Shown piece after piece: positions 213 to 38,853 of a DNA stretch of 64,000 nucleotides. The stretch lies in the IMG/VR virus record IMGVR_UViG_3300044946_000175, positions 1 to 64,000 of that record. One strand, written 5' to 3'. A model generated the notes under the pieces. It did not search any database. It was not told the origin of the DNA and saw only the letters and a program-made list of their open reading frames with translations. Made by a program: the position numbers and the translations under genes. The DNA is from a virus. The stretch's first letter is position 1; every line of letters begins with the position of its first letter.

Positions 213-323
213 CTACTCCACAGTCGCTAAAGCGGCGTGGTTTCTACAGGGTTGTCCCTGATGCCCCTAAATGGTATCCGAAATCAAGAAGCTAAAGCCA
301 AAAAGCGTTTCATTCACGGGCCG
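213..323. other. Non-coding stretch before the first promoter
   Basis: No convincing gene is seen here. An overlapping frame running to 295 has shadow-like composition and no ribosome-binding site. Together with the downstream leader, the gene-free interval is about 250 bases. Confidence 0.3.
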
Positions 324-351
324 TTGTACTTGTCTTTTTGGGTGGTATATT
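324..351 (+). promoter_or_regulatory. Putative sigma70-like promoter
   Basis: TTGTAC at 324-329, a 16-bp spacer, then TATATT at 346-351. It would transcribe the chain starting at 462. It has the same 16-bp spacing as the phage promoter family described elsewhere in the window, but lacks the TTGCCT hexamer. Confidence 0.4.
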
Positions 352-461
352 AAGGAGTAATAGGTCAAGCCAGCGGTGAGGGCGATCATTTTCCCGCAAA
401 GGCTGGCTAGGGAAATGAGGGCCACCAATTTTTTCGTAGCAGGAAAGGTAAAGGAGGCTTT

Positions 462-7945: not shown

Positions 7946-7978
7946 AGAGCCCCAATCCTATGACTGGGGCTCTTTCAT
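7946..7978 (+). terminator. Rho-independent terminator
   Basis: AGAGCCCCA at 7946-7954 pairs with TGGGGCTCT at 7965-7973 (9 bp, GC-rich), followed by TTCATTT. It separates the small-gene region from the structural module. Confidence 0.8.
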
Positions 7979-7995
7979 TTCTGCTGAATTTTGAT

Positions 7996-8030
7996 ACACT
8001 ATTCCAGTTCAAAGTCCACCGGAATAGTGT
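7996..8030. promoter_or_regulatory. Perfect 10-bp inverted repeat in front of the portal gene
   Basis: ACACTATTCC at 7996-8005 and GGAATAGTGT at 8021-8030 form perfect arms around a 15-nt loop, ending 1 nt before the portal ATG. TTTCAT-N16-TACACT overlaps its left arm as a weak promoter candidate. It could be an operator or an RNA hairpin masking the start codon region. Confidence 0.5.
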
Positions 8031-8031
8031 C

Positions 8032-10890
8032 ATGTCTGAAATTGATGTAGTTCGCCTTCGGCCCGACATTCCGACAAAGGCCGATTTTCATTCCGATCCA
8101 ACAAATCGGAAGCAGTGGACAATGGAAAATTTCCGCTTACCTAGCGGAGAAAGTATGCTAGGGCCGGACGCATTTCTAGTGCCTCCCAGTCGTGAGTTTA
8201 CTCAAATAGTTAATTCAGCAACCAAGGTTTATAGCTATCGTTTCGACGAAGCTATGAGGGACACATATGTAAACGCTCGTTCGATGATGAGAGACACGTT
8301 CATTCTCGGCCTTTTAGAAGAACGCATTCTTCCCACCATCAACCGCGACTGGCATCTCACCGTTGAAGATGAAAAAGATCCATTCCAGGTTCACGTTCGG
8401 GATAGCCTTACCAAAGTCGTGAAGAGAATCAAGGACTTCGACGCCATGCGTCGGCAGTTCATGATGGGGGCATGGTGGGGTCGTGGTGGCAATCAGTGGA
8501 ACTTCACACGACTGGAAGACTTGAACAATGCGTGGGGTATTGGAAATTGGGACCCCCTTCACGGCGATTCAATCCAGTTCACGTACGACGGCGTTCCGGC
8601 GATCATGCTCGACAGCATGACGACGGGTTGGTACGCGCGGAATGGAGCGAAATGGGGCATCGACTTGCGTTGGACGGATCGGGGTGGCACGGCTCTCTGC
8701 CTTCAGCGTCCATACTGGCGCGAGCGGTTTGGTATCTATCAGCACATCCGTCAGAAAGCTGATTATTTTGAAGGTGAACTGGCCGGATCGGTGCAGGGAT
8801 TCGGTTTGCGGGGTCAGGTCTATTGGCAGTATATCGCTCGATCCGATGCCTTGACGTGGATGCTGGCCTACATGCAGGCCGTCGGCATGATGGACCTGCT
8901 CGTCTTCAATTATCCAGCCGGGAATGAGGCCGCACGTCTCCAGCAAATCGCCAATGCTCAAGCCGTGATCGGTAAAGCCGCCATCGTCTGTCCTCGTAAT
9001 CCGCAGGGGAACTGGCCAGCCATCGAACAGATTCAGATGAATGAGGCCGGACTGAAGGCGTTACAAAACCTCGTGGCGGACTACTTTGATCGGAACATCG
9101 AGAGAATGATCGTCGGTCAAAGCATGTCGTCTGGCGGCGGACAGATGCAGGGGTTGGGCGATACGGGACGGGCATTTTTGGCGAAGGCAACTAAAGACGA
9201 GATTTTGATTCATGATGCAAATCGTCATGATAATGTATTGACTTATGATCTACTTGCGCCTCTCAAACGGTACAATTTCCCCACAGCTAAGTTCCCGGTT
9301 TATTTCAAGTCGCTCCTGCCGAATACAGAAGCAGCAGAGAAAGTTCGGAATGGTCTGGACCTCGTAAGCATTCAAGTGCCGATTAAGATGAACGAGTTGC
9401 GAGAGGCGGCTGGTTACGCTCATCCAGAGCAGGATGATGAAGTGGCAGGTGGACCTCCTCCAATGATGCCGATGGACCCGATGGGAATGTCAGGTGAAGG
9501 CGCGCCTCCCATGCTTCCGGCTGCTGGCGGCGCAACTACATTCGCGAATGCTGGCGGAGTCCAGGAACCGATGCCATTCTCGCGGGATTCTTGGGACATG
9601 CCGACAAGATTTATGGGAACGGCTCCGGGTGGGATGGGGACCACGCCATCTGGATTTGGTTTTCCTGGAGGAAGTAATACTTATCTGCCAGGAGGAAACT
9701 TCGGCAAAAGGCAAAAGAAGATCGGATTTACTCGATACGATTATCCAGTTCAGCCAATGACGCAAGAGCAGCCTTATCCGCGCGTGCTGGTGCGCGGGGA
9801 TACTATATGTGTGGATACCGGATTGGAGAGATTTACGCTTTATCCAGGCGATCAGCTTTACTCGGAATGGATTTCCTGGGTCGCTGCCAACAGACAAAAA
9901 GTTCGTTGGGCATCGGTTAGCGACCCGTCGATTGCTCCTCAGTTCGGTCAGACGCTGATTGCTCCCGAACAGTATCACAATCGACGCAGGCCGACGCACT
10001 ATAAGTACTACGATCAGATATTTGAAGATGCTGGTGGTGCATGGAAAGTACCTGATATCAAACATTACATCAACATGATGAGTATTCAGCCCCAAGCATT
10101 AAGTGTGAGCAAACTAGCGATTAACAATCTCAAACCAGGAGAAGAAGAGGCAGAAGACGAACTGCCTGGCCATCCAGAATTTATCGAACGTGCAGACCAG
10201 ACAGACCTCGAATTTCCGATCATGGTTATTCGTTACCCAGATGGAGATTGGATATGTGACGGCGTTCATCGATTGTGGAAGGCAAGAGCTAAAGGCATGA
10301 AGACTATTGAAGGCTATCTTATCACTAAAAACCAACTTGACGAAATTCCCCATCGCAGGTTACATGAGCAGTACCGGGGCTGGAAAAGACCGACGTACTA
10401 TCGGGCCGATACTGGAGGTCGAGAGCACTCTGAAACCGATGGCAAGTTCACTAATAAGAAAAATCCAGGTGGTAAGGGGGAGAACACTAAAAGACAAAAT
10501 ATTAAACGTCCCGAGTGGCGTTCGGAGAACCTGACCGATCCGAATACTCGCGTATCTAAAATTCTCAGTCATGTCAAGAGCGTGCCGCGACGGACAATCG
10601 ATCAGGCATGGAAAAAGGTAACTGGACAGTACGAGAAATTAAAGACAAAATATGGCCCGACATACGCACGCCTCATAGTAGGAAGCGCCATCGCGACACT
10701 GCCAATTCCAGTACCGGGTATTTCTCTCGCGACAGCGGGAACTATTACGGCAATTGCCATGCTTCATAAACGATTATTCGGCAACAAGAAACAGCCAACA
10801 CAGAATCGACGACTGCCGTTCGATCCTCGAACACAGGCTCGTCTTTTCCTTGATCGTTGTAGAATGAGACGCCATGCCACGACTAGCTAA
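8032..10890 (+). CDS. Portal protein (Mu gp29/DUF935-like) with C-terminal ParB/sulfiredoxin-like domain
   Basis: A 952-residue product from ATG 8032; an in-frame ATG at 7960 lies inside the terminator and is rejected. Residues 1-470 match the DUF935 portal layout: helical N-terminus, FNYPAGNEAA segment, CPRNPQGNWPAIEQ, and a MIVGQSMSSGGG-type motif. Portals form the dodecameric head vertex for DNA passage. A Gly/Met/Pro linker follows. Residues about 725-760 (MVIRYPDGDWICDGVHRLWKA) resemble the ParB/Srx nucleotide-binding core with its DG-x-HR motif. A hydrophobic stretch (about 876-912) lies near the C-terminus. Typical DUF935 portals are about half this length, so the C-terminal half is an unusual extension. 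Confidence 0.75.
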   Translation: MSEIDVVRLRPDIPTKADFHSDPTNRKQWTMENFRLPSGESMLGPDAFLVPPSREFTQIVNSATKVYSYRFDEAMRDTYVNARSMMRDTFILGLLEERILPTINRDWHLTVEDEKDPFQVHVRDSLTKVVKRIKDFDAMRRQFMMGAWWGRGGNQWNFTRLEDLNNAWGIGNWDPLHGDSIQFTYDGVPAIMLDSMTTGWYARNGAKWGIDLRWTDRGGTALCLQRPYWRERFGIYQHIRQKADYFEGELAGSVQGFGLRGQVYWQYIARSDALTWMLAYMQAVGMMDLLVFNYPAGNEAARLQQIANAQAVIGKAAIVCPRNPQGNWPAIEQIQMNEAGLKALQNLVADYFDRNIERMIVGQSMSSGGGQMQGLGDTGRAFLAKATKDEILIHDANRHDNVLTYDLLAPLKRYNFPTAKFPVYFKSLLPNTEAAEKVRNGLDLVSIQVPIKMNELREAAGYAHPEQDDEVAGGPPPMMPMDPMGMSGEGAPPMLPAAGGATTFANAGGVQEPMPFSRDSWDMPTRFMGTAPGGMGTTPSGFGFPGGSNTYLPGGNFGKRQKKIGFTRYDYPVQPMTQEQPYPRVLVRGDTICVDTGLERFTLYPGDQLYSEWISWVAANRQKVRWASVSDPSIAPQFGQTLIAPEQYHNRRRPTHYKYYDQIFEDAGGAWKVPDIKHYINMMSIQPQALSVSKLAINNLKPGEEEAEDELPGHPEFIERADQTDLEFPIMVIRYPDGDWICDGVHRLWKARAKGMKTIEGYLITKNQLDEIPHRRLHEQYRGWKRPTYYRADTGGREHSETDGKFTNKKNPGGKGENTKRQNIKRPEWRSENLTDPNTRVSKILSHVKSVPRRTIDQAWKKVTGQYEKLKTKYGPTYARLIVGSAIATLPIPVPGISLATAGTITAIAMLHKRLFGNKKQPTQNRRLPFDPRTQARLFLDRCRMRRHATTS

Positions 10891-15472: not shown

Positions 15473-15521
15473 TGATCTTTGCGTTTGATTCCAGGCTTTT
15501 TATTTGTTTCTGGAATCGAAC

Positions 15522-18002
15522 GTGCGGACGAAAATCAAATCATCGATCTATTCACAACGTCGCACACAGCGCCAGCCGACTCTCTACCGACGCAATGGCA
15601 GTACTACCAATTACACTGGTCCGGACGCCACGCTTGATTTTTTGCAAACTCTTAACGATCCTCGTCGTTGGATAAAGCGTCCTGGCGTTCCCATTTTCAA
15701 ATGCCATCGTCGAATTGATCCGACAACCGGCAAAGAAATCGTTGTCGATGAGGTGAAGCTCTACGAAATCGCCCGCAATCTTCAGCGGATGCAGAAGCAG
15801 GGCGTTCCGATCCGCATGACATTGGGGCATACAGAACCGACCAAAGCTGAACCGCACCAACCGCCACTGGCCGGATTTTATGTGAATGCTCGCGTGGCTC
15901 CATTCGGACCACAACAAGAACCGGCAATTGTGGCGGACGAGTTGCTCGATCCGACTCACGCTCAAATACGCAAAAACTTTCCTTATCGTTCGAGTGAATA
16001 CTACGACGATGATAAGAGCATTACAGGTGTCGCTCTTTTGGCCCGCGATCCTTACCTGGATCTGGGCGTCGTCAGTTACTCCAAGAGCGTGAAGCTGCCG
16101 CTTAATTATCAACGACGTGACGGATCGTTCCCGGTGGTTTATCGGTATTCGATGGGCGATGGGAGACGTCGCGCCTACAGACAAGTCCGTCGTCCCGCTC
16201 GCTATTCGAGGAGAGGAAACACAATGCCAGCGCCACGACAACGACCTCAACCACAGCCGATGCATTCGTGGTTGCCGCAGTACAACCAACCGCTGCCGCC
16301 AACATCGCAAACCGGTTTGCCCATCGGCACTCCTTACGGTTACAGACCGCAGCCAGGCACCATGTACTCCGCGCCGTGGCCGCGTGATGGCGGATCGACT
16401 TACAGTCCTGGACAGCGGATTCCGCACAGTCACCGCGATGCGCCCAACCCACAGACGTACGCGGATTATGCCGGACCTCGTGGTGGACCGACGGGCCGGA
16501 TGCCGATGGGTCCGCGATCTTCTGGCAGTGCGCGGATAGGACAGAGGCATGTGGCCGCTTCGATCAATCCTCACATTCAGTCTCACATGCCGCGACCGGC
16601 CACTCCGATGCCCGGAATGCGCGGCTCTCTGCACCAAGCTCCCCGTCCAACTCAAAGTTCCCGCCAACCGCGATACGCGCGATACGCGGATGAACTGGAC
16701 GAGGAGGAATTCGGTGCAGGCGAAGACGCTGGTTTTGAGGCTGGTGAAGAAGCCGGTTTCGCTGGCGGTGAGATGGCAGGTGAAGAGATGATGGGTGGTG
16801 GAATGCCAATGGGAGGTATGGGCGAAGATGCCGGTATCGAATCCGTCCTGCAAAACCTGGAAATGGCCATTGAGGGTCTACAGGAGGTTCTCGGTGGTGG
16901 AGAGGAGTTTCCAGAGGCCGGAGCCGAAGGATTAGGGCCACCAAACACGCCGTTTCCGGAAGAGGAAGTGGAAGAAGAGGAATTTCCCACTCCTGCATCG
17001 CGTTATCGGCAGAACGCGCAGCGTCCGGCCCGATACGCCGAACATCCGCGTTACGAATCTCACACACCCTCTCCTTATTCCCAACTGACCCACGCCCGTC
17101 AACGCGACGTTCGCACTGATCGTGGCCAGCATCGTTACCAGAACCCGGAGAATCCCATGCGATATGGCTCGCCATCACCATCGCGAGTGACGTATGATCG
17201 CCGACTCGCTCAGATGAATTACGAGCTACAGCAGAATAGCTACGCGCTGGAGCAACAGCGGCGCGTGAATGAACTGCTGCTCTACGAGCGAGATCAGGCC
17301 GACCTTGCCGCGTGTGAAGCAGAGATCAGCCGTCTCGCCGGGATGGGCTATCTGGTGGACGATTACGAAGTCGAAGAACTTCGCAGAAAGCCGTTCCACG
17401 AGCGGGGTCACTACATCGCCTACATCATGGATCGGATTCAGAAGATCGGCACAGAACAACTCCCACCAGTACTCGGTGACCCGACGCCTGGACCGACGCC
17501 GGACATGAGCTATCCGCTGACCAAGGAGGAGATGCAGGAAGTGCTGGCTATCACCGGCAACAATCGTGATCCTGCTCACTACAAGCGGGCCGTGGAGATG
17601 GTGCGATACCAGCGCGCCCAGGGCGGTCAAGGTCAGGCTCCGATTCCCCAGAACCGACTGCCGATGCAGTACCAGGCACCGGCACCGCAGTATCCGGCTG
17701 GTCCGGCCTATCGGCCTCCGGCTCCGGAATTCGATCCGTACGACTCGCGAGCTTACCAAGGACTGACGCATTCAGCCGAATACGAAAATCAGTTCGCTCC
17801 CGGTTACGGCGATGTGCCTCCCGAGCAGTACCAGCCGACCATGTACGGACAGGTTCCGGAACCTGATCCACGACAGCAAGGATTCGATGAGTACACGCCG
17901 CCTCCCGGCTCGCGTTTGAGCCGTAGTCCCTATCCAGAAGGTGGAATGGGCGGAATGGACCTGTCGGAATTCGGTCAGCCGAACGATAACTCGGGCTGGT
18001 AG
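15522..18002 (+). CDS. Mu I-like prohead protease with scaffold-like extension
   Basis: An 826-residue product from GTG 15522 (GGAA 6 nt upstream; TTG at 15504 also in frame). Residues 30-200 follow the Mu I-protein/prohead protease pattern: KLYEIARNLQRM, GVPIRMTLGHTEP, PPLAGFYVN, then IRKNFPYRSSEYY and ITGVALLARDPYLDLG. Known members cleave scaffold and capsid precursors during head maturation. The remaining 600 residues are Pro/Arg/Gln-rich, with an acidic Glu/Gly segment at about 386-490 and a helical part near 550-640, typical of an attached scaffold. It lies directly upstream of the coat genes, the expected position. Confidence 0.65.
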   Translation: MRTKIKSSIYSQRRTQRQPTLYRRNGSTTNYTGPDATLDFLQTLNDPRRWIKRPGVPIFKCHRRIDPTTGKEIVVDEVKLYEIARNLQRMQKQGVPIRMTLGHTEPTKAEPHQPPLAGFYVNARVAPFGPQQEPAIVADELLDPTHAQIRKNFPYRSSEYYDDDKSITGVALLARDPYLDLGVVSYSKSVKLPLNYQRRDGSFPVVYRYSMGDGRRRAYRQVRRPARYSRRGNTMPAPRQRPQPQPMHSWLPQYNQPLPPTSQTGLPIGTPYGYRPQPGTMYSAPWPRDGGSTYSPGQRIPHSHRDAPNPQTYADYAGPRGGPTGRMPMGPRSSGSARIGQRHVAASINPHIQSHMPRPATPMPGMRGSLHQAPRPTQSSRQPRYARYADELDEEEFGAGEDAGFEAGEEAGFAGGEMAGEEMMGGGMPMGGMGEDAGIESVLQNLEMAIEGLQEVLGGGEEFPEAGAEGLGPPNTPFPEEEVEEEEFPTPASRYRQNAQRPARYAEHPRYESHTPSPYSQLTHARQRDVRTDRGQHRYQNPENPMRYGSPSPSRVTYDRRLAQMNYELQQNSYALEQQRRVNELLLYERDQADLAACEAEISRLAGMGYLVDDYEVEELRRKPFHERGHYIAYIMDRIQKIGTEQLPPVLGDPTPGPTPDMSYPLTKEEMQEVLAITGNNRDPAHYKRAVEMVRYQRAQGGQGQAPIPQNRLPMQYQAPAPQYPAGPAYRPPAPEFDPYDSRAYQGLTHSAEYENQFAPGYGDVPPEQYQPTMYGQVPEPDPRQQGFDEYTPPPGSRLSRSPYPEGGMGGMDLSEFGQPNDNSGW

Positions 18003-18059
18003 CATTCCAACTAAAGACAAAATTTGAAATTGCTTTTTAACTCGCGCGGAGAGTTTGAC

Positions 18060-18590
18060 ATGCTGCTCATATCGATCTTGTTGGTACTGTTGCTGGTAGC
18101 GGGTCTATTTCTTGGAATCATGGACTCCGACTGGGATTTCAACTTCAGTCCGTCTGGTAATATCTATCCCTCTCGATTTGTCATGCTCGACAGCACGACG
18201 CAGGGGGGTTGTTTCATGGGTGGACTCAACGCCATGTGCGTTGGCGCTACTCCACAAGCAACGGAGTTTGCGCCAGGACAGCTTGGTAATACCCAACCAC
18301 CCTACGTCTATGCGGTGGGGACCGATCCAAACCTGCCTCCTGGATCGCAATCTCGCGTGGGGGTCTACGGACCCGGACGCAACTGTCTGGTGGACGTCGA
18401 TCCGGCCTTTGCCGGTCAGATCAAGCCGGGATCTTTGATCGTCTGCTCCAACTCAGGATTCGCTACACTCGCATCACCGTTTGGACCTTGGAATCAATGG
18501 ATTGCTGGAATCTCCAGAAGTTTTGCCAATGGCGGTCAGACGGTGAACGTGAAACTGGTGATCTTTCCTTGGTCTCCCACGGGTTCGTAA
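18060..18590 (+). CDS. Small head-associated (decoration-like) protein
   Basis: A 176-residue product from ATG 18060, chosen for the GGAGAG 6-7 nt upstream; a TTG at 18024 would add 12 residues. The first 20 residues are strongly hydrophobic (MLLISILLVLLLVAGLFLGI), unusual for a virion protein. ATG 18120 would remove them. The rest is beta-rich, with Gly/Pro turns, and its placement between protease and major capsid protein is where decoration or DUF2190-like proteins often lie. Assignment is from position and composition. Confidence 0.5.
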   Translation: MLLISILLVLLLVAGLFLGIMDSDWDFNFSPSGNIYPSRFVMLDSTTQGGCFMGGLNAMCVGATPQATEFAPGQLGNTQPPYVYAVGTDPNLPPGSQSRVGVYGPGRNCLVDVDPAFAGQIKPGSLIVCSNSGFATLASPFGPWNQWIAGISRSFANGGQTVNVKLVIFPWSPTGS

Positions 18591-18650: not shown

Positions 18651-20189
18651 ATGCCTCCGACAATGATTCAGCCCGGTTTCAACGTCCAACACCGTCACGC
18701 TCGCGCCGTGCCGACGATGTATGCCGCGCCCGGTTCCATCGATCCTCGCAGCATTCCCCGTCCGCAGCTTCCGGCACCCAATCCGGCGCTTGGTGAGCGG
18801 ATGCGTCAACGCCGTTGGCAGGAGCGAGAGCGAGAGACGTACTACCAGCTTCGGCACGCGCCGATGCCGCACCAGTACACCCAAGACCGACCACATCTTG
18901 AATATGGCGGCGGTTCGGGCGACCCTCGTACTCAGTTTCTTCCGCAAGGTCCGCCCACGGGATTCCAGGCTCGTGGTCTGAATCAGTCGTACATCGACGC
19001 TGGCGGACGTGCGCCAACCGTATACTCCGATCCCCGTGCGCTCGTGGCTCGTGCGTCTCGTCCCACCTATGCCTACAATCGCGTTCTAGGTGTACAGAAA
19101 TCGCCGACCATGTACGCCGGTCTGGGAACGTGGCCCAATCAGTACTTTCCTGGTGGTTCCAATACGTACATCGCTTCCTACGAAGCGACTGGTCTGCTCC
19201 TCAAGTACACGCGAAACCCGACGTTCTTCCGCATCAACCGCTATCTCAAAGAGATGACGGTCAAGAACGACATGGGTTACTATCTGACGCTCGATGGTGA
19301 CTCTCCTTACCGCGTGCTTTCCATCAATGACTATCTCTGGGAAGATGGCGTGGACGCTCCCGGTGGCCGTCAAGAACGGCAGGGATTCGCATTCCAGCCA
19401 TACCGCACCACTCGGTACACTTTCCCGTTTTCTTTGGGCAGGAAGGGCGTGCAGCAGGCGGTATGGGCAATCGTGGCTGAACATGCCGCGATGCAGGCTG
19501 CGAAGGCCATGACGGTACGGACGTTGATCATGGTGAATTTGATCAATGCTGCCGCAAACTGGACCGGTCCCGGTTTCACGAACACATCCGCTGCTTCCGG
19601 CGCATGGTCCACGCAGGGAGGGGCTTCGGTTAATCCGATTCCTTACCTGCAAAACGACATCAACACGGCATTAATCGGTGTTGAGCAAGCAACTGGTGGC
19701 ATCGTCACGGATGAGGAAGCACTGACCTTTACCATGAATCCGCAGGAAGGTCGAAAGGTATCGGCTGCCGACGAGTACCGTGGATACATCAAGGGTTCTC
19801 CTGACGCTCTCGCTGCCATTACCGATCAGAGAAATCCGAACCGCAAGTACGGACTGGCTCCGTTCATCTACGGCTTGCGACTGGTGATCGAGAATGCAAT
19901 CGTGGTGACGACACCCAAGTCCGCCAATGTCGCTTCGCCAGCCGCGCAGTCGAGGTCGTACATCTGGCCGCAGGCGATTGCCATGATCGCTTCCAGGCCG
20001 CAGGGGATCGTTGCACCAGAAGAACAAACGTTGGACTTTTCGACAATTTGTGCCCGCTTCTATGAAAATCAGACCGTAGAAACCAAGTCCGATCCAGATC
20101 AACGCCGGGAAATGGGTCGTGTTGTGGAGGACTATTGCCTGTCGCTTTCGGCCCCGCAGACCGGGTGGCTTTTCACCGGAGCTAGCTGA
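18651..20189 (+). CDS. Major capsid protein
   Basis: A 512-residue protein downstream of protease and decoration-like genes. The N-terminal 170 residues are Pro/Arg-rich and could be a delta-like or processed region. The folded part begins at LLLKYTRNPTFFRINRY, with a helix rich in Ala (EHAAMQAAKAMTVRTLIMVN) and a C-terminal MGRVVEDYCLSLSAPQTGWLF strand. The length and order fit an HK97-fold coat protein. Segments recur in the two paralogues at 21439 and 23152, including a 26-nt identical DNA block around DQRNPNRKY. Virion proteomics would settle it. Confidence 0.75.
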   Translation: MPPTMIQPGFNVQHRHARAVPTMYAAPGSIDPRSIPRPQLPAPNPALGERMRQRRWQERERETYYQLRHAPMPHQYTQDRPHLEYGGGSGDPRTQFLPQGPPTGFQARGLNQSYIDAGGRAPTVYSDPRALVARASRPTYAYNRVLGVQKSPTMYAGLGTWPNQYFPGGSNTYIASYEATGLLLKYTRNPTFFRINRYLKEMTVKNDMGYYLTLDGDSPYRVLSINDYLWEDGVDAPGGRQERQGFAFQPYRTTRYTFPFSLGRKGVQQAVWAIVAEHAAMQAAKAMTVRTLIMVNLINAAANWTGPGFTNTSAASGAWSTQGGASVNPIPYLQNDINTALIGVEQATGGIVTDEEALTFTMNPQEGRKVSAADEYRGYIKGSPDALAAITDQRNPNRKYGLAPFIYGLRLVIENAIVVTTPKSANVASPAAQSRSYIWPQAIAMIASRPQGIVAPEEQTLDFSTICARFYENQTVETKSDPDQRREMGRVVEDYCLSLSAPQTGWLFTGAS

Positions 20190-20241: not shown

Positions 20242-20274
20242 AACAAGCCATGTCCTCGTAAGACATGGCTTGTT
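20242..20274 (+). terminator. Perfect 13-bp hairpin after the capsid gene
   Basis: AACAAGCCATGTC at 20242-20254 pairs perfectly with GACATGGCTTGTT at 20262-20274 around a 7-nt loop, followed by TCACAT. It probably stops or attenuates transcription past the capsid gene, or forms the 5' end of the endonuclease mRNA. Confidence 0.6.
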
Positions 20275-20306
20275 TCACATACCAACTCTATACTGGAGAG
20301 TCAGTC

Positions 20307-21125
20307 ATGCTCGACGTTGATTTTACACATCCGAACAATCGCTGGACATTAATCGGACCAGGAAGCAGAAAAGGATATGTGAAGGTTCAGTGTTCATGTC
20401 CAGACAAAACGATCAAGGAAATTTACGTCTATGACATCAATAAAGGCAAATCTCTTTCTTGTGGTTGTCTTCGTAAAGAAGTGATGAGTGAGACAAAAAG
20501 AACACACGGGATGTCGAAAACGGCAATCTACAATACTTGGTGTCTAATCATCAGAAGAACGGAAAACGAAGACGATCTCAGATGGGAGGATTACGGTGCT
20601 CGTGGAATTAAGATGTGTGCGAAGTGGCGAGAATCCTTTGAGGCATTTTATGCTGATATGGGAGATCCGCCGTCCGATGAGTATACCATTAATCGAATCG
20701 ATAATGATGGAAATTACGAACCGGGAAATTGTCATTGGGCAACTGATTCGGAGCAACAAAACAACAAACGTAACAACCGACTGATCGAATGGAATGGCCG
20801 CACTCAAACGATGGTTCAGTGGGAGCGTGAACTGGGTTTTCGGGAAGGCACGCTCAAGAATCGGCTCGATCAAAACAACTGGACTGTCGAGCGGGCGATG
20901 ACGACTCCGGTAAGGACAAAGAAGAAAATCACATACAATGGAAAGACGCAGGCCATCGATGAATGGGCTGAGGAGTACGGACTGACTCCCGCGATGCTGC
21001 GATCTCGGTTAAATCTAGGAATTCCATTCGAGACTGCTATAGCAACTCCTGCCTATCATTGGAAAGGCAGAGGAAATCCGATTCCGAGAGAAGCAGAAGA
21101 AGGCGAATCATGCCACAAGAAATGA
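20307..21125 (+). CDS. HNH-type homing endonuclease
   Basis: A 272-residue protein from ATG 20307 (GGAGAG 7 nt upstream; ATG 20265 lies in the hairpin). Residues 60-150 match free-standing HNH homing nucleases: THGMSKTAIYNTW, DYGARGIKMCAKW, Y(T)INRIDNDGNYEPGNCHWATDSEQ-x-NN. Two C-terminal repeats of a WNG(R/K)TQ...W..E(L/Y)G pattern look like DNA-recognition modules. The family spreads by cutting cognate sites. Its place right after the capsid gene is a typical insertion site. It overlaps the next gene by 16 nt. Confidence 0.8.
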   Translation: MLDVDFTHPNNRWTLIGPGSRKGYVKVQCSCPDKTIKEIYVYDINKGKSLSCGCLRKEVMSETKRTHGMSKTAIYNTWCLIIRRTENEDDLRWEDYGARGIKMCAKWRESFEAFYADMGDPPSDEYTINRIDNDGNYEPGNCHWATDSEQQNNKRNNRLIEWNGRTQTMVQWERELGFREGTLKNRLDQNNWTVERAMTTPVRTKKKITYNGKTQAIDEWAEEYGLTPAMLRSRLNLGIPFETAIATPAYHWKGRGNPIPREAEEGESCHKK

Positions 21126-21442
21126 AAGGCCGAAGAATCCCCGTCGTCGATCCGATGGCCGATCCTTATGACTTGCTTAAAGAGCCGGGGGATTATTATG
21201 GACCGACGATGTTTTGTGGCTATTTGTCAGTTTGGTACATACTTCCAAATGCAAAAGATGATCCACGAGCAATCGGATTGCATCACTGCAAGATCGACCC
21301 TCCGCAGTTTCATTCGTTGATTGAAGAGTCGGATGGAACTCTGACCCTTCGAAATTCCATCGGAGCAGGCCCACCTAACTACTACTGGCATGGATTTTTG
21401 AATCAGGGTGATTGGATGCTGACACAGAGGGATAAAAAGTGA
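21110..21442 (+). CDS. Hypothetical protein (possibly DUF6527-like)
   Basis: A 110-residue product from ATG 21110, preceded by GAAGGCGAATC. It has a compact alpha/beta pattern ending in LTLRNSIGAGPPNYYWHGFLNQGDW, which recalls DUF6527-type proteins; I hold this weakly. It overlaps the homing nuclease at its start and the next gene by GTGA at its end. Confidence 0.5.
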   Translation: MPQEMKGRRIPVVDPMADPYDLLKEPGDYYGPTMFCGYLSVWYILPNAKDDPRAIGLHHCKIDPPQFHSLIEESDGTLTLRNSIGAGPPNYYWHGFLNQGDWMLTQRDKK

Positions 21443-22287
21443 ACATCGATCAAGCACGAGACGGCGGATCGAGTATCGCGGATGAGCCGCCAGCGGAGCC
21501 GTACGTCCCGAACGAAGAGGCCACTACACTCTTGCGGAAGTACGCCGCCAATCCAACGTTTTATCGAATCAATAAGTACGCCGCGTCCACCCGTGTTGAC
21601 AGGCTGACTGAAACGCAAAAGCAGTTCGTGCCAGAGACTACTCGGTACATGTACTACTTCGGTCTTCCGCGAGTCAATAAAAGTGACATTGCCGTGGCTG
21701 AGTACGCCGCGATGCAGGTCGCAAAAGCAATGACAGCGCGGACCATGTTTGCCGTGGATACGCTAAGTTGCCGGTCGCTGTGGGGAAGTGCGGCAAGGTA
21801 CAAGTTTCCAAAGACAAAAGAGGAATGGGAATTCTTTTTGGAGGTGTGGGCAGGTCGAAATAAGTCGCTAGACCGCGAGAACTTCGTGTTGGTGATGAAT
21901 CCCACTCGGGCGAGCGATTGGGCGCAGTCCAAAGAAGTAGTCGAATGGCTCAATAGTGGTGTCGGTCAACGCATGGCAGATGTAATGGATCAGAGAAATC
22001 CGAACCGCAAGTATGGGCTTCACTCGCGACCATTCGGTATCAAGACGGTTGTCGAGAATGCAATTAAGGTCGATCTCGAAATCGAACCCAAACGCCAATA
22101 CGTCTGGCCGAGAGAACTCTGCTGCGTGCTTTACGTTCCGCACGAGCATGGTGATCCGTTCGACGCCACACTTCGGATGAGCATGGAAGAAGAAATGACA
22201 GTTGAGCAGAAGAGCGACAGAGGCAGAGTTGTTGAGGACTACTCGTTCATCGCTCCGAATTCCAGGACTGGTTGTTTGTTAGTGTGA
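21439..22287 (+). CDS. Capsid-protein paralogue
   Basis: A 282-residue product from GTG 21439 (GTGA overlap). It aligns along its length with the major capsid protein: LLRKYAANPTFYRINKY versus LLLKYTRNPTFFRINRY, AEYAAMQVAKAMTARTM versus AEHAAMQAAKAMTVRTL, MDQRNPNRKYGL versus TDQRNPNRKYGL, RGRVVEDYSF versus MGRVVEDYCL. It lacks the 170-residue N-terminal region and has a shorter middle. It may be a minor capsomer or vertex protein, or a decaying duplicate; the intact frame argues for function. Confidence 0.7.
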   Translation: MNIDQARDGGSSIADEPPAEPYVPNEEATTLLRKYAANPTFYRINKYAASTRVDRLTETQKQFVPETTRYMYYFGLPRVNKSDIAVAEYAAMQVAKAMTARTMFAVDTLSCRSLWGSAARYKFPKTKEEWEFFLEVWAGRNKSLDRENFVLVMNPTRASDWAQSKEVVEWLNSGVGQRMADVMDQRNPNRKYGLHSRPFGIKTVVENAIKVDLEIEPKRQYVWPRELCCVLYVPHEHGDPFDATLRMSMEEEMTVEQKSDRGRVVEDYSFIAPNSRTGCLLV

Positions 22288-22322
22288 AAGACAAAACAAG
22301 AAATCCAAACTAAGGAGAATTT

Positions 22323-22610
22323 ATGTCTGAGGAACCAACCAGAACGAAGATCGTGATTTTTAACTATCCTGCTGGTAACGAGTTGGCCAAAAAACAGCAG
22401 ACAGAAAATGCTGCGATGCTCGTCGATTGCATGACCATCGCGTGCCCTCGCGATCCGCAGGGAAACTGGCCAGCGGTTGAGGAGGTTGTTGCAATAGAGA
22501 TCAGCGACATTCGATTGACGGCGGCAATCGAAGTGTTGAAACTTGGTAAGGCAGAGGAGAGGTTGCGAAAAGAAGCCCTTGACGTGGTTGTGGGGTATTT
22601 GAAAGGCTGA
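22323..22610 (+). CDS. Portal-fragment paralogue
   Basis: A 95-residue product behind AAGGAG. VIFNYPAGNELAKKQQTENA and CPRDPQGNWPAVEEV match the portal segment LVFNYPAGNEAARLQQIANA and CPRNPQGNWPAIEQI. It therefore corresponds to one portal subdomain (portal residues about 285-350) encoded as a free protein. The role is unknown: it could modulate portal assembly, or be a domesticated duplicate. Confidence 0.65.
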   Translation: MSEEPTRTKIVIFNYPAGNELAKKQQTENAAMLVDCMTIACPRDPQGNWPAVEEVVAIEISDIRLTAAIEVLKLGKAEERLRKEALDVVVGYLKG

Positions 22611-22621
22611 AAAGATAAATC

Positions 22622-22783
22622 ATGACCAGAAATCCCAAATATGCTGCTGTTTTAGCGATTCTTCAGCTTGTCTTGGGGATTTATTTGCTGGACGCAGGAA
22701 AGACTTTGTTGGGAGGTTTTACGATGTGGTGCTGCGGAGTGAACACAGTGCTTATGATTAATACACAACCAAAAACGACGTAG
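22622..22783 (+). CDS. 53-residue membrane peptide
   Basis: ATG 22622, stop TAG 22781-22783, abutting the next ATG. Two short hydrophobic segments (AAVLAILQLVLGIYLL and MWCCGVNTVLMI). AAAGAT lies upstream. No family is recognised; the tight spacing supports it as a gene. Confidence 0.5.
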   Translation: MTRNPKYAAVLAILQLVLGIYLLDAGKTLLGGFTMWCCGVNTVLMINTQPKTT

Positions 22784-23155
22784 ATGTTGTATCTTTTTAC
22801 CACCGCTGCCGAACTTGCCAAGTCGCGTTCACGCCCGACTGTGGGCATTATGATCCATCTCGACACGGGCAAGAAATATTTCTTTCCCTCTCCCACGACA
22901 GTCATTCAAGGACAGCCGGTTCCTGCATTTCTTGGGGGGATTTTAGCCGAGCAAGCACTGGGTCGCGAACTGATCGAACTGCCGAGCACGAAGATCGAAT
23001 ATGGTTTAAATGAGAAGGGTACTTGGACCTGTCTGAAGGTGCTGAAACATGCTATAACAGAAGAAGCACCGGCGGATCAGTCCGTGCCGGTATCGCCGAA
23101 AGAGCCCACTCCGGACGATTATGCTGCCGTGGCGGTGATAGGAAAAGACGGATGA
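22784..23155 (+). CDS. Hypothetical protein
   Basis: A 123-residue product starting immediately after the preceding stop and ending in an ATGA overlap. The N-terminal half is beta-rich (TVGIMIHLDTGKKYFFPSPTT) and the C-terminus is acidic and proline-rich. It is part of the cluster between the capsid and head-completion genes. Confidence 0.5.
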   Translation: MLYLFTTAAELAKSRSRPTVGIMIHLDTGKKYFFPSPTTVIQGQPVPAFLGGILAEQALGRELIELPSTKIEYGLNEKGTWTCLKVLKHAITEEAPADQSVPVSPKEPTPDDYAAVAVIGKDG

Positions 23156-23673
23156 TTACCTACGAAGAATTTGAGCAATTGGTGACGAACGCTCAGCGCG
23201 CCCTGGACCAATTGAAGGAAGGTTTGGTGCAGTACAAGCCGCCACGTCCGACTGGCCCCTGCGCCGAAATCACCATTGACGAGAAACAACACGTATTTTT
23301 TGTCGAGTTCACGGATAATAAAGGGCCGTTTCTGAGACAGACATACGAAGGTGATTTTGCTTCTCCAGATCCTCCACTTCAGCCAGTCATGCAGACGATC
23401 ATGACTTCTGCTTTGATCTGGATAGAAAAACAATGTCCAGGAATCATGGAGGATAATGTCAGCGTGGTCTTGACGCAGAGACAGGCCAGATTGTATGGAC
23501 GATCCTTTGAAAATAAGGCACATATCAAAGGCGCACCGGATGCTTTGACTGCTGTTTGCGAGCAGAGGAATCCTCATCGGCGGTACTCGCTCTGTCCATT
23601 CCTTTACGGAATTCGGTTGCGGATCGAGAATCGGAAAGAAGAAGATCTTGTGGTATTGCAGGAGGTGGGATGA
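23152..23673 (+). CDS. Protein with a C-terminal capsid-derived segment
   Basis: A 173-residue product from ATG 23152 (ATGA overlap). The C-terminal 40 residues, HIKGAPDALTAV(C)EQRNPHRRY then FLYGIRLRIEN, match the capsid segment YIKGSPDALAAI(T)DQRNPNRKY then FIYGLRLVIEN. The N-terminal 110 residues are different. It thus looks like a fusion of an unrelated domain with a capsid segment, the second capsid relative in the cluster. Confidence 0.65.
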   Translation: MITYEEFEQLVTNAQRALDQLKEGLVQYKPPRPTGPCAEITIDEKQHVFFVEFTDNKGPFLRQTYEGDFASPDPPLQPVMQTIMTSALIWIEKQCPGIMEDNVSVVLTQRQARLYGRSFENKAHIKGAPDALTAVCEQRNPHRRYSLCPFLYGIRLRIENRKEEDLVVLQEVG

Positions 23674-24266
23674 TGTCGATACCCCAAACATCCAACTCCA
23701 GTCTCGTACCGTATGTTTCGGCGATCCAGACATTCGGTTTCTTCTCGCAAAAAGTCATAGCTGATATGCTGAAGGCAAACACTGATTCGCCTCGTCCTTC
23801 TTATCTAGCGTGTATTGATCCGAACAACTACTTTGGTCGGAAATGGTTGCAGCACATTGGATTCGGTGCCGGAGAAATTGAATCAGCGGTTGTCGTGGCT
23901 TCTCGGTACACACCAGCCGATCTTATGAATTTGACCGGCGTGAGCCAGATTCTACTTCAAGGCTTGAACGCAGCCAGGGCGCTATGGTCTGCCTACAAAA
24001 TTTTGAAACCTGGTACGGCTCGTCCTGAAGAATGTCCTGCTGCTCGTGAAAGTTTTGAGATGCTTACGCAGTTGAGAGATGGCGAAAAACTATTTAGCTT
24101 CCAAGAATCGGAAAAAGCAGGACTTGTTGCCGTGATTCCGCCTAATCCTTATGCCCTCGCGCCAGGGCAGTCTACAATTGTCCCTCGCCTGGTACGTCTC
24201 TTTCCCACATATGGTATCAATTCATTACTGAATCGTGGTGGTTACAATCGTGGCGGTGACTGCTAG
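23670..24266 (+). CDS. Putative head-completion or connector protein
   Basis: A 198-residue product from ATG 23670, preceded by GGAGG and overlapping the previous stop as ATGA. It is helical in the middle (RYTPADLMNLTGVSQILLQGLNAARALW). A YTPADL opening is shared by some head-completion adaptors, but the match is short. Its position after the capsid genes and before the tail genes suits an adaptor. It overlaps the opposing HNH gene by 4 nt. Confidence 0.5.
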   Translation: MMSIPQTSNSSLVPYVSAIQTFGFFSQKVIADMLKANTDSPRPSYLACIDPNNYFGRKWLQHIGFGAGEIESAVVVASRYTPADLMNLTGVSQILLQGLNAARALWSAYKILKPGTARPEECPAARESFEMLTQLRDGEKLFSFQESEKAGLVAVIPPNPYALAPGQSTIVPRLVRLFPTYGINSLLNRGGYNRGGDC

Positions 24267-24850
24267 ATATGCGTCCAGATTTTTCTTTTAAGTATGTTGC
24301 AGATTAAAGCCGGACTCACGTTGTAATGTTCGGCTATCTGGCGTTGTGATACGAATTCACCAGCAGCATAGCAACGGCGGATTTCAAGGACGATGCTTTC
24401 GTCCAAAACAGCCATGTTGTTCTTGGCTCCGTTCTGATCTCGGTTATGTCCGTGAGACACACGATCATCGATGTTTTCTTGTTTAGTTCCCCAACGAAGA
24501 TTCTCGACTCGATTATTTTTGGCATCACCGTTCAGATGGCGACATTCCATGCTTTCTGGACGGGGACCAACAAAAGCAAATAAAACAAGATGATGGACTG
24601 AATATCGTTTGTGTTTTTTGTTTGGTCCGCATAAAGTCACACGGCAATGTCCATATGTGCTGCTTGGATCGGTAAGCAAATCGGACCAGTTATTATTGAG
24701 CAAGTTAGGGTTCGTAGTTCGGCGAGTTTGCACACTTCCATCATCTCCAACCCGATACCCCGAATAGCCCAGAAAATCCAGCGTCCGATAGCAAACGTCG
24801 GAAATTTCGTCGTAAAAGAACTGGTGGCTGGTAGAATTGACATCGAACAT
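24263..24850 (-). CDS. HNH homing endonuclease (copy A)
   Basis: A 195-residue minus-strand protein. An N-terminal DVCYRTLDFLGYSGYRVGDDGSV segment resembles NUMOD4-type modules. HHLVLFAFVGPRP, CRHLNGDAKNNRVENLRW and a KQEN motif form the HNH core. A C-terminal helix-turn-helix (SQRQIAEHYNVSPALICNILK) would recognise DNA. GGAG lies 9 nt before the ATG. It is paralogous to the gene at 38133-38735 and lies antisense between head and tail genes. Confidence 0.8.
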   Translation of the reverse strand: MFDVNSTSHQFFYDEISDVCYRTLDFLGYSGYRVGDDGSVQTRRTTNPNLLNNNWSDLLTDPSSTYGHCRVTLCGPNKKHKRYSVHHLVLFAFVGPRPESMECRHLNGDAKNNRVENLRWGTKQENIDDRVSHGHNRDQNGAKNNMAVLDESIVLEIRRCYAAGEFVSQRQIAEHYNVSPALICNILKRKIWTHI

Positions 24851-24977: not shown

Positions 24978-25595
24978 ATGACCGAACTCATCGACCGGCG
25001 AAAAGCAATCCAGGCAGTAGCATCTTCTGCTGTCGCTGCACTGATTCCCGTTTCAGAGTCCACTTCGGCTCAGTCCGAACCTCCGCACGTCGCGCCGGGT
25101 GAGTGCATTACCGCTTCTGTTGTCGTGACCGTGGTCGACAAGTGGGAGAAGAACAAAACCTCTCAGTTTCCGAATGGCTTTATCATTCCATCGGCAGTGA
25201 TTCGAAAAGCTCTGGATGACAAGCTCTTTGGTTCGGTCTGCATTCGCGCATCGAACCACATCAATGTAAAGAATGAATGCGATGCAGAGATTGTCGGTCA
25301 TGTCGCGGGTTGGCGATTTGTCGAATTTTTCGTCGGTTCGGATGGGAGCATTGTGCCGCTCAAAAACAAATGTCTTGTGGCTGACATCATCGTGCAAGCC
25401 AAGGCATTTATCGGCAAAGCCGTTCGCCTGTCCAGTTTCGATGTTTATGGTCCGGATGGTGTCTGCACGGAGATTCGCGGCGTGGACTGCGTGTTCTTGA
25501 CTGACAATCCGTGCTGGCCGGACGAAAAGATTCCTGAAGGCAAGTATGTCAATATTGGTGTGTGCAATGAAGGGGTTGACGTGCCACTCAAATAG
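24978..25595 (+). CDS. Putative exported protein with Tat-like N-terminus
   Basis: A 205-residue protein. DRRKAIQAVASSAVAALIPVSES gives a twin-arginine followed by a hydrophobic stretch and an Ala-Gln site, like a Tat signal. The mature part is beta-rich. The final residues (YVNIGVCNEGVDVPL) repeat the N-terminal motif of the next protein (YAALGVCEEGVDIAL). It lies at the start of the tail genes, 9 nt before the putative tube gene, so a virion role is possible despite the leader. Confidence 0.55.
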   Translation: MTELIDRRKAIQAVASSAVAALIPVSESTSAQSEPPHVAPGECITASVVVTVVDKWEKNKTSQFPNGFIIPSAVIRKALDDKLFGSVCIRASNHINVKNECDAEIVGHVAGWRFVEFFVGSDGSIVPLKNKCLVADIIVQAKAFIGKAVRLSSFDVYGPDGVCTEIRGVDCVFLTDNPCWPDEKIPEGKYVNIGVCNEGVDVPLK

Positions 25596-25604
25596 AGGAA
25601 AGTC

Positions 25605-26153
25605 ATGCCAGCCGTAGAAACATTCCAATATCATGTTAATGGTCCCTGCATCCCACAATCACAGGTTGGGTCTGGGGGTGCATACGCCGCTCTGGGTGTC
25701 TGTGAAGAGGGCGTGGACATTGCTCTTCAGCAAGCGGTCCACGACATCAAGCACGATGGCGCTGGCGGACAGGACGGCTTTGAAGCAGAGAACATCATTC
25801 TCAACTCTGCCGTCACCGCAAGATTCTCGCTCGTGCCTTATGGTGGTGCCCTCATCAACACTCTGCGGGGATTCGCGCAGGGTCAGCCGTTCGACCTGCC
25901 GGACGGCATCATACCGCAGCCGGGTACTCTGTTCGGACTCAATAACCTCCTGCCGGGTTTGTACATCCCTACTTTCTTCGATTCTGACGGTCCTTGGACA
26001 TTTCTGAATTGTCGTGTGGTGAATCCAGGTAGCAATCGCGTATCGACCAAGGAATCCCGCCCGCAGTTTGAGTTTCGTAACTTCAATTACGTCGATCCGT
26101 CGATTGCTGCGACCATTCTCGGGAACGTTCTGTACAAGAGGGCCTCACCGTAG
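25605..26153 (+). CDS. Putative major tail (tube) protein
   Basis: A 182-residue product behind GAGGAAAGTC. It is beta-rich with Gly/Pro turns and ends in ILGNVLYKRASP. Size, composition and position (after head genes and before the chaperone and tape measure) are those of a tail tube protein. Against this, no family motif is recognised and a TnpB gene interrupts the order. It shares the GVC-x-EGVD motif with its upstream neighbour. Confidence 0.45.
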   Translation: MPAVETFQYHVNGPCIPQSQVGSGGAYAALGVCEEGVDIALQQAVHDIKHDGAGGQDGFEAENIILNSAVTARFSLVPYGGALINTLRGFAQGQPFDLPDGIIPQPGTLFGLNNLLPGLYIPTFFDSDGPWTFLNCRVVNPGSNRVSTKESRPQFEFRNFNYVDPSIAATILGNVLYKRASP

Positions 26154-26204: not shown

Positions 26205-27299
26205 CTAGGTAGATGCTAAAACGTCTGTTGTTTTTGGGGCTGGTTTACGAACAGCCCAAGCACTCAAATTGAGCGCGGCGTTGAGATCGGCATTCACGGA
26301 GAGTCCGCAATGCATGCAGACAAACTCAGACTGATTCTTGCGATTTGTCTTTTCGCAGTGTCCACACTTGGAGCAGGCGCGGCTGCTGTTTCGTGGATCG
26401 ACGGCAACGACAGGCACGCCTGCCAGTCGAGCTTTGTACTCCACGAAAGTTCTGAGTTGTGCGAATGCCCAATTACCGAAACGACGACGAAATCTTCGGC
26501 CAACCGTATCCTCGATTCGGTTTCGGATTCCCTTGAGGTCTTCAAGAGCGATTCCCAATCGAAGTGTCTTTGCCTTTTCGACCAGTCGCTTGCTAATGTT
26601 ATGGTTTGTCCATGTTTGAAATCGACGCTGACGACCGGACATGGACTTCAACCGACGTTTTGCATTCTTGGTTCCTTTTCGTTGGTATTGTTTGCGAGCA
26701 GTCATCCGACGTTTGCGGTTTCGTTCGACACAAGTACCAGAGAATTGCTCTCCGGTGGAATCGGTGGCAATATTAGCAATTCCGAGATCGACTCCCAAGA
26801 AGTTTTTAATTTCCAATATTGGATCTTCGGGAATGTCGCATGTGGCAAACAAGAAGAATTTTCCATCTCGATAAACCAGATCTACTTGTCCTTTAAGGCG
26901 GGCAAGATTGGCTTTTTGATAATCACCGAAAATGTAAGGAACGAGAATGCGGCCATTCAAAGTCAAAATCGAAACTTTGTCGCATCCCTTCCACGACAGA
27001 ATTCGCTCATCGTATGTTATTCCTCCGGTAGATTTAAAAATTGGACAAATAGATCTGTCTCGCTTAAAACACTCAGCGGCTTTACCAATGGCACGAATAG
27101 CCATCTGAGCCGACAAGCCGAACCGCTCACGAAGTTCTCGGTAGCAGAGTTTTTGAATCGATGGAGCAGAAAACAAGCCAGCGTCGAATCCTGCTTTTGC
27201 GGCAAACGATGCAGCGGCATTGCATGCTCTCAATGTAACGAGCAAAAAAGAGGCCTGTTCGTCAGTAGGCAGCAGTCGAACTTGAACGGTTAGTTTCAT
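26205..27299 (-). CDS. tnpB: TnpB-type RNA-guided nuclease (IS200/IS605 OrfB)
   Basis: A 364-residue minus-strand protein, a normal TnpB length. RuvC-like motifs are intact: GVDLGIANIATDS (first Asp), LGIALEDLKGIR (Glu), and NADLNAALNLS (last Asp). A zinc knuckle, CSKCGH...CMHCG, lies between them. TnpB nucleases cut DNA guided by an omega RNA from the 3' end of the element; here that would lie near 26154-26260 on the minus strand. No tnpA is adjacent, so the element cannot move alone, or it has been retained for another purpose. The ATG lies 6 nt after a TATAAT box. Confidence 0.88.
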   Translation of the reverse strand: MKLTVQVRLLPTDEQASFLLVTLRACNAAASFAAKAGFDAGLFSAPSIQKLCYRELRERFGLSAQMAIRAIGKAAECFKRDRSICPIFKSTGGITYDERILSWKGCDKVSILTLNGRILVPYIFGDYQKANLARLKGQVDLVYRDGKFFLFATCDIPEDPILEIKNFLGVDLGIANIATDSTGEQFSGTCVERNRKRRMTARKQYQRKGTKNAKRRLKSMSGRQRRFQTWTNHNISKRLVEKAKTLRLGIALEDLKGIRNRIEDTVGRRFRRRFGNWAFAQLRTFVEYKARLAGVPVVAVDPRNSSRACSKCGHCEKTNRKNQSEFVCMHCGLSVNADLNAALNLSAWAVRKPAPKTTDVLAST

Positions 27300-38132: not shown

Positions 38133-38735
38133 TTATGTGACATGCTTCCATCTGGCCCGCGTCACAGCGCCTCGTACTGCACCAAATGGTTTATTATATT
38201 TTCTACAAATCTGAGTAATCATAGCTCCACTATCGTATTCGATTCGCATAATTCGAACCAGGTCTTCCGTTAGTACGGCATTTCCATTACCTTCTCCGCG
38301 ACTGCTTGTTCCGTGTTTTATTTTGTCTGCTGCATTGCCTTGCGGTGTATCCCATCTGAGATTGGATAATTTATTGTTTTGCTGATCGCCATCGTTATGG
38401 CATCCTTCCATTCCAAGCGGACGAGGGCCAACGAACGCTTCAAGAACTAGACAATGAACGAGAATTTCCTTTCTGTAGTAATGGCGGTAAAGACCAAATA
38501 TTGAATACGATTTGTTATTTAACCTTGATTTACGTCGTTTCCATACAGTTCCGACTATTAAGACTGATCCGCTTCCGTTACCTTTGCCTCTTTTGCCGTG
38601 ATATGAACAATTCCAAACCGATCCGTCATCCCCTACTCGATAGCCTGGAAATCCCATAAAATCCAGCTTGCGGTAACAAACATCGTTTTCAGGATCGCAA
38701 TGGAATTCTGGAATGCTAGAATAGCCGTCTGACAT
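38133..38735 (-). CDS. HNH homing endonuclease (copy B)
   Basis: A 200-residue minus-strand protein from ATG 38735 (GGAG 8 nt upstream). It shares DVCYRKLDFMGFPGYRVGDDGSV with copy A (24263-24850), then HCLVLEAFVGPRP, CHNDGDQQNNKLSNLRW and a C-terminal helix-turn-helix-like tail. An upstream in-frame start at 38798 would translate through a 12-bp hairpin and is rejected. Both copies share the leader GGAGCAAA..CCATG. Confidence 0.8.
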   Translation of the reverse strand: MSDGYSSIPEFHCDPENDVCYRKLDFMGFPGYRVGDDGSVWNCSYHGKRGKGNGSGSVLIVGTVWKRRKSRLNNKSYSIFGLYRHYYRKEILVHCLVLEAFVGPRPLGMEGCHNDGDQQNNKLSNLRWDTPQGNAADKIKHGTSSRGEGNGNAVLTEDLVRIMRIEYDSGAMITQICRKYNKPFGAVRGAVTRARWKHVT

Positions 38736-38765
38736 GGCCTTTGCTCCAGTTAAGCAAGGTTGTGT

Positions 38766-38796
38766 GGGTGCGGGTGACAGGGGATCACCCGCACCC
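38766..38796. terminator. Perfect 12-bp hairpin
   Basis: GGGTGCGGGTGA at 38766-38777 pairs perfectly with TCACCCGCACCC at 38785-38796 (7-nt loop), followed on the plus strand by AAATTTTATG. It is a strong terminator candidate upstream of the next plus-strand gene. It occupies the same relative position as the hairpin beside HNH copy A. Confidence 0.65.
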
Positions 38797-38853
38797 AAAT
38801 TTTATGAAACAGTCGGAGTGAGGAAAGTGCCGAGTCCTCCAGGCAACGCTTTA

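What the first reader, a model, noticed from the sequence alone, without database searches (positions are those of the whole stretch)
21439..23673. Capsid protein and two capsid-derived paralogues in one cluster
The 21439 product is a shortened, near full-length relative of the capsid protein. The 23152 product carries only the KG(S/A)PDAL..RNP(N/H)(R)KY..YG(L/I)RL segment fused to a new N-terminus. A 26-nt block is identical between the capsid gene (19824-19849) and the 21439 gene (21988-22013), pointing to recent duplication or gene conversion. Open frames with overlapping starts suggest they are used.
Basis: seen in the sequence. Interest (0 to 1): 0.78.

Follow-up and report, generated by a model that had tools for sequence, protein, structure and literature searches.

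The report
Phage carries spare virion-protein domain copies
A 119-kb phage carries, beside its capsid gene, small extra genes made from pieces of its own capsid and portal proteins, and a related phage independently carries the same portal piece, so these pieces are probably useful by themselves, perhaps as decoys for bacterial immune sensors that recognise those very proteins.

Summary
P2 (21439-22287) is a shortened paralogue of the putative capsid protein (31% identity, E 1e-30). P3 (23152-23673) carries an 85-residue capsid segment (42%, E 2e-21), more than the motif noted. The 26-nt identity is exact, but synonymous sites elsewhere are at chance, so the duplication is old; the block may be a small conversion tract. 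ORF 22323-22610 is a copy of residues 313-358 of the phage's own portal (54%, E 9e-19). A relative (IMGVR_UViG_3300003323_000724) has a small gene with exactly the same 313-358 window of its own portal, at another locus; a single origin of the two copies is rejected (AU p 0.001-0.005). That window matches the portal clip domain. The copies lie in accessory slots; relatives lack the capsid copies, and neutral drift would have put about 10 stops into P2. My preferred explanation, inferred only, is that these are non-assembling domain copies that compete for partners of the real portal and capsid. The likeliest partners are host defence sensors: SpbK docks on portal clip domains, and Thoeris and CapRel sense capsid. 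AlphaFold models were too poor to confirm folds, and the capsid call rests on gene order.

The parts
7960..10890 (+). portal protein (976 aa), source of the clip-domain copy
   Evidence: Pfam Portal_Mu E 1.3e-24; PHROG portal E 8.7e-13; alignment to JBD30 portal gp32
8896..9033 (+). portal residues 313-358, the segment duplicated elsewhere; clip-domain layout
   Evidence: BLASTP boundaries; strand-helix-strand-strand between two helices in a low-confidence model, pLDDT about 50 here
15504..18002 (+). conserved 832-aa protein in the protease/scaffold position
   Evidence: orthologues in both relatives; no Pfam match; function inferred from position
18024..18590 (+). conserved 188-aa protein directly upstream of the capsid gene
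   Evidence: orthologues in both relatives
18651..20189 (+). putative major capsid protein, P0001 (512 aa)
   Evidence: gene order portal - protease/scaffold position - small gene - capsid shared by three phages; no profile match
20242..20274 (.). 15-bp hairpin just after the capsid gene, terminator-like on the minus strand
20265..21125 (+). HNH endonuclease gene (start possibly 20307), absent at this site in the relatives
   Evidence: PHROG 3377 E 1.5e-65
21110..21442 (+). 110-aa protein of unknown origin in the extra block
   Evidence: weak PHROG 15183 match E 0.011
21439..22287 (+). P2: shortened capsid paralogue (282 aa) lacking the N-terminal arm region and residues 206-239
21988..22013 (+). 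26-nt block identical to capsid gene 19824-19849
22323..22610 (+). portal clip-domain copy (95 aa); residues 10-55 match portal 313-358
   Evidence: 54% identity, E 9e-19; E 1.6e-15 against all ORFs; AAGGAG ribosome-binding site
22622..22783 (+). 53-aa hydrophobic protein in the extra block
22784..23155 (+). 123-aa protein; weak counterpart in the relative at the same place
   Evidence: E 2e-4
23152..23673 (+). P3: new N-terminus fused to an 85-residue capsid segment (residues 78-160)
23670..24266 (+). conserved gene that closes the accessory slot
   Evidence: 49% identity to L009 11942-12520
24263..24850 (-). HNH_3 endonuclease flanking the slot, also present in the relative
   Evidence: Pfam HNH_3 E 8.1e-13; R orthologue

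Best explanation
Shown: the block between the capsid gene and gene 23670 is an accessory slot. In this phage it holds three small genes made from pieces of its own head proteins: P2 (capsid core without N-arm region and residues 206-239), the clip copy (portal 313-358) and P3 (capsid 331-415 on a new N-terminus). A relative carries a separate small gene with the same portal window, derived from or tracking its own portal. Inferred: the products fold as free domains that cannot join the portal ring or capsid lattice, and they compete with the real portal and capsid for a binding partner. Most likely partner: host defence sensors that dock on these surfaces, with the monomeric copies binding without the clustering that activates the sensor.
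For: The same 46-residue portal window (313-358) is copied in two phages at different loci with unrelated flanks, and a single origin of the copies is rejected (AU p 0.001-0.005). The window has the clip layout, strand-helix-strand-strand between two helices (low confidence; alignment to JBD30 gp32; layout in PMC4493910 and PMC12847820). SpbK docks on portal clip domains and must cluster to act (PMC12847820). Thoeris ThsB1 senses hexameric capsid, and E-loop and P-loop changes abolish it (PMC11312562); the same paper cites CapRel and Lit as capsid-sensing. DSAD1 shows that a phage protein can block a sensor by competing with its structural trigger (PMC11087589). P2 kept an open frame where drift gives about 10 stops (0 of 300 open). 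Relatives lack the capsid copies and fill the slot with other genes.
Against: No binding partner, host or defence system has been identified, and no expression data exist. AlphaFold gave no usable capsid fold (pLDDT 32) and only a poor portal model. P3 and the clip copy are short enough that an open frame alone is weak evidence (10% and 26% stay open under drift). PADLOC has no match. A capsid or portal fragment could equally trigger a sensor: PMC11312562 says the Lit protease is activated by a capsid peptide.
Confidence: 0.35

Rival explanations
1. The copies regulate or poison head assembly and packaging, of this phage or of a co-infecting relative: a free clip domain competes for terminase or adaptor, and capsid pieces cap growing shells (interference competition).
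For: The clip is the docking site of terminase and neck (PMC4493910; PMC12847820). P2 lacks the N-arm region and residues 206-239, which sit where an E-loop would be. The copies track their own portal. HNH genes, another competition device, flank the slot.
Against: Copies most like the phage's own portal should also harm its own assembly. No test of binding was possible.
Confidence: 0.25
2. P2 and P3 are real virion parts: an alternative capsid subunit for vertices or head decoration, with the portal copy similarly built into the neck.
For: They lie within the head gene region and are translationally coupled. Capsid paralogues at vertices exist in other phages (T4 gp24, from general knowledge).
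Against: Absent from two relatives with orthologous head genes. P2 has lost segments that make lattice contacts if the fold is HK97-like, and P3 and the clip copy are only part-domains.
Confidence: 0.18
3. By-products of recombination, for instance around homing endonucleases, that are drifting and have no function.
For: HNH genes flank the slot. P3 and the clip copy could stay open by chance. The 26-nt block suggests recombination between copies.
Against: P2 has 282 open codons at 37% identity, never seen in 300 drift runs. The same portal window recurs in a second phage with the same ends. Starts are coupled and ribosome-binding sites are good.
Confidence: 0.17
4. P2 is a xenologue: a degenerate capsid gene from a distant relative brought in with the HNH gene, not a duplicate of this capsid.
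For: Synonymous sites are saturated, and quartet topologies other than P1+P2 are not rejected (AU p 0.06 and 0.18).
Against: P2 matches P1 best among the three capsids at variable positions (32 of 129, against 28 and 16) and shares the 26-nt block with it.
Confidence: 0.05

Closest known systems
Portal clip domain of tailed phages (T4 gp20, SPbeta YonE, JBD30 gp32)
   Same: Three strands and one helix between two stem helices; about 46-56 residues
   Different: Here it also exists as a separate small gene without stem, wing or crown
SpbK / YonE (TIR defence triggered by the portal clip)
   Same: The duplicated piece is the kind of domain that SpbK docks on
   Different: No SpbK-like sensor is known in the host here, and no binding was tested
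DSAD1 versus DSR2 (phage protein competing with the tail-tube trigger)
   Same: A phage protein occupies the trigger's binding site on a sensor
   Different: I found no report that DSAD1 is a copy of the tube protein; these genes clearly derive from the portal and capsid
T4 gp24, vertex paralogue of capsid gp23 (general knowledge)
   Same: Capsid paralogue encoded near the capsid gene
   Different: P2 lacks the N-arm region and the 206-239 segment, and the relatives do without it

Membership tests
Portal clip domain | three strands and one helix lying between two stem helices, followed by the tunnel loop | tested here: met
   The full portal model shows E313-319, H323-334, E340-346, E355-358 between helices 285-307 and 362-379, but at low confidence (pLDDT about 50). 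The JBD30 tunnel loop 301-325 aligns just after the second helix
Portal clip domain | fragment covers the whole clip and nothing else of the portal | tested here: met
   BLASTP limits 313-358 in both phages
Portal protein family (Portal_Mu), parent gene | profile match above the curated cut-off | tested here: met
   87.6 bits against a 23.9 cut-off
HK97-fold major capsid protein (18651 gene) | sequence-profile match to a capsid family | tested here: not met
   No match in Pfam or PHROGs; hhalign to Mu-like gpT probability 0
HK97-fold major capsid protein (18651 gene) | HK97 fold | tested here: inconclusive
   AlphaFold model pLDDT 32
HK97-fold major capsid protein (18651 gene) | position after portal and protease/scaffold genes, conserved in relatives | tested here: met
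   the protease/scaffold label is itself positional
Vertex-type capsid paralogue (gp24-like) for P2 | keeps the domains needed for lattice contacts | tested here: inconclusive
   Segments 1-147 and 206-239 are missing, but which structural parts these are was not confirmed
Anti-defence protein | inhibits a named defence system | not testable with these tools
   No PADLOC match (its models are of defence systems); host unknown

The most novel reading that the evidence does not exclude
Phages repeatedly turn the sensor-exposed domains of their own essential head proteins (portal clip, capsid pieces) into separate small genes that act as soluble, non-assembling decoys against host immune sensors.
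Probability: 0.28. Interest if true: 0.88.

Novelty: new variant of a known kind. Interest (0 to 1): 0.6.

Why it matters
Several bacterial defence systems recognise portal or capsid proteins, which a phage cannot easily change. Genes that carry just those domains would be a general way to blunt such sensing and would give a sequence signature (a small ORF matching one domain of the phage's own portal or capsid) that can be searched across phage genomes. If the partner is instead the terminase or adaptor, they are natural inhibitors of phage packaging. Either way, recurrence of the same 46-residue portal window in two phages makes the question testable.

Tried and rejected
Structure prediction of the capsid and portal with 5- and 3-sequence alignments failed in confidence, so no fold search was run. 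Profile searches for the capsid and its copies found nothing in Pfam, PHROGs, PDB sequences or PADLOC. hhalign of the capsid to Mu-like gpT found nothing. I suspected that 24978-25595 and its possible counterpart in the relative (L009 1567-2052) are inactive prohead-protease folds; hhalign gave probability 0.1, so I dropped it. Recent duplication was rejected by saturated synonymous sites. Further relatives: eight viral scans, two genome scans and the phage collection gave only two relatives, both in IMG/VR. An attempt to find clip-only copies in the annotated phage collection with the JBD30 portal and with the window's clip segment gave no clear case; extra places in some records were not followed.

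Full report
Setting. The window is bases 1-64000 of a 119161-base IMG/VR virus record. Its portal gene (7960-10890) matches Pfam Portal_Mu (E 1.3e-24), and a terminase gene lies near the other end of the record. No phage in the annotated collection has a related capsid. Viral scans found two relatives: R (IMGVR_UViG_3300003323_000724, loci L009/L010) and M (IMGVR_UViG_3300033067_001965, loci L011/L023). The three share portal, a protease/scaffold-position gene, a small gene, the capsid gene and the 23670 gene in the same order. The capsid gene has no profile match and no usable model, so 'capsid' rests on this order.

The observation. P2 and P3 are real capsid paralogues; a reversed-genome control gives nothing better than E 0.47. 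P2 keeps capsid 173-509 but lacks 1-147, 206-239 and 322-342. P3 holds capsid 331-415, 85 residues, on a 77-residue N-terminus without relatives in these phages. The 26-nt identity is exact. Under random synonymous recoding a run that long appears in 4 of 2000 trials, and all eight codons agree (chance 3e-4). Elsewhere codon agreement is at chance (33 of 87, expected 29.3), so the duplication is old. A short conversion tract is possible.

A self-comparison of all open frames shows that ORF 22323-22610, between P2 and P3, copies the phage's own portal. The match is portal residues 313-358, 54% identity, E 9e-19. R has its own small gene (L010 7586-7903), upstream of its portal, that matches residues 313-358 of its own portal (52%, E 1.7e-14). 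The flanking parts of the two small proteins are unrelated. On the 47 aligned residues each copy groups with its own portal; every tested tree with a single origin of the copies is rejected (AU p 0.001-0.005). So either the same window was copied twice, or one copy has been repeatedly converted by its portal; different loci and flanks favour the first. M, a 45.7-kb record, has neither portal nor capsid copies, and R has no capsid copies.

What the window is. In portals the clip domain is three strands and a helix joining the two stem helices; it is the docking site for terminase and neck (PMC4493910; PMC12847820). The AlphaFold model of the portal is poor overall (pLDDT 35), but its best region is this one (about 50): strand 313-319, helix 323-334, strand 340-346, strand 355-358, between helices 285-307 and 362-379 (numbering shifted by 50). 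The copied window runs from the first residue of the first strand to the last residue of the third. In the alignment with JBD30 gp32 the published tunnel loop (301-325, PMC11445458) falls directly after the following helix, as expected.

Are they used? P2, P3 and the next gene start inside the preceding stop codon. The clip copies have good ribosome-binding sites. Neutral drift to P2's divergence gives about 10 stops, with none of 300 runs open; for P3's domain and the clip copy an open frame is weaker evidence (10% and 26% open). The block is an accessory slot: R has one small unrelated gene there plus a weak counterpart of 22784, and M has two different genes. An HNH gene opens the slot here and another follows it.

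How it may work (inference). Portal clip domains are bound by the TIR defence protein SpbK, which must cluster on the ring to act. Capsid protein is sensed by Thoeris, where E-loop and P-loop changes and the hexameric state matter, and by CapRel and Lit. DSAD1 blocks DSR2 by competing with its structural trigger. Free copies that bind a sensor but cannot assemble would be decoys. The same copies could instead block terminase or adaptor, or be virion parts; these rivals stand because no partner, host or expression data exist. The shown steps are homology, the recurrence of one window, age and accessory location. Folding, non-assembly, binding and benefit are inferred.

Noticed in passing
window, 36 sites, e.g. 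18013, 22287, 28108, 53458, 55285, 57609: AAAGRCAAA occurs 36 times against 1.65 expected. Sites are of two kinds: directly before start codons (AAAGGCAAAacATG, like a ribosome-binding site) and as half of small hairpins with TTGCCTTTT.
   Followed up: partly
24978-25595 and 25605-26153: The last residues of 24978-25595 (VNIGVCNEGVDVPLK) resemble a stretch near the start of the next gene's product (ALGVCEEGVDIAL; phmmer E about 0.002), perhaps another small duplicated piece of a virion gene. The 24978 product has a Tat-like N-terminus, as does a possible counterpart in the relative (L009 1567-2052).
   Followed up: partly
26205-27299 (-): TnpB / Cas12f-like OrfB gene (Pfam Cas12f1-like_TNB E 2.6e-22) within the structural region.
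   Followed up: no
24263-24850 (-), 38133-38801 (-), record 67267-67818 and 88556-89122: Family of four related HNH endonuclease genes spread through the record.
   Followed up: no
record 96200-98160 (L007): Dense block of short repeats giving many overlapping frames in both strands that match each other; not examined.
   Followed up: no
34377-36527 and 41532-43187: Two large proteins share a 42%-identical region (E 2.5e-48), another internal paralogue pair, possibly tail or fibre proteins.
   Followed up: no
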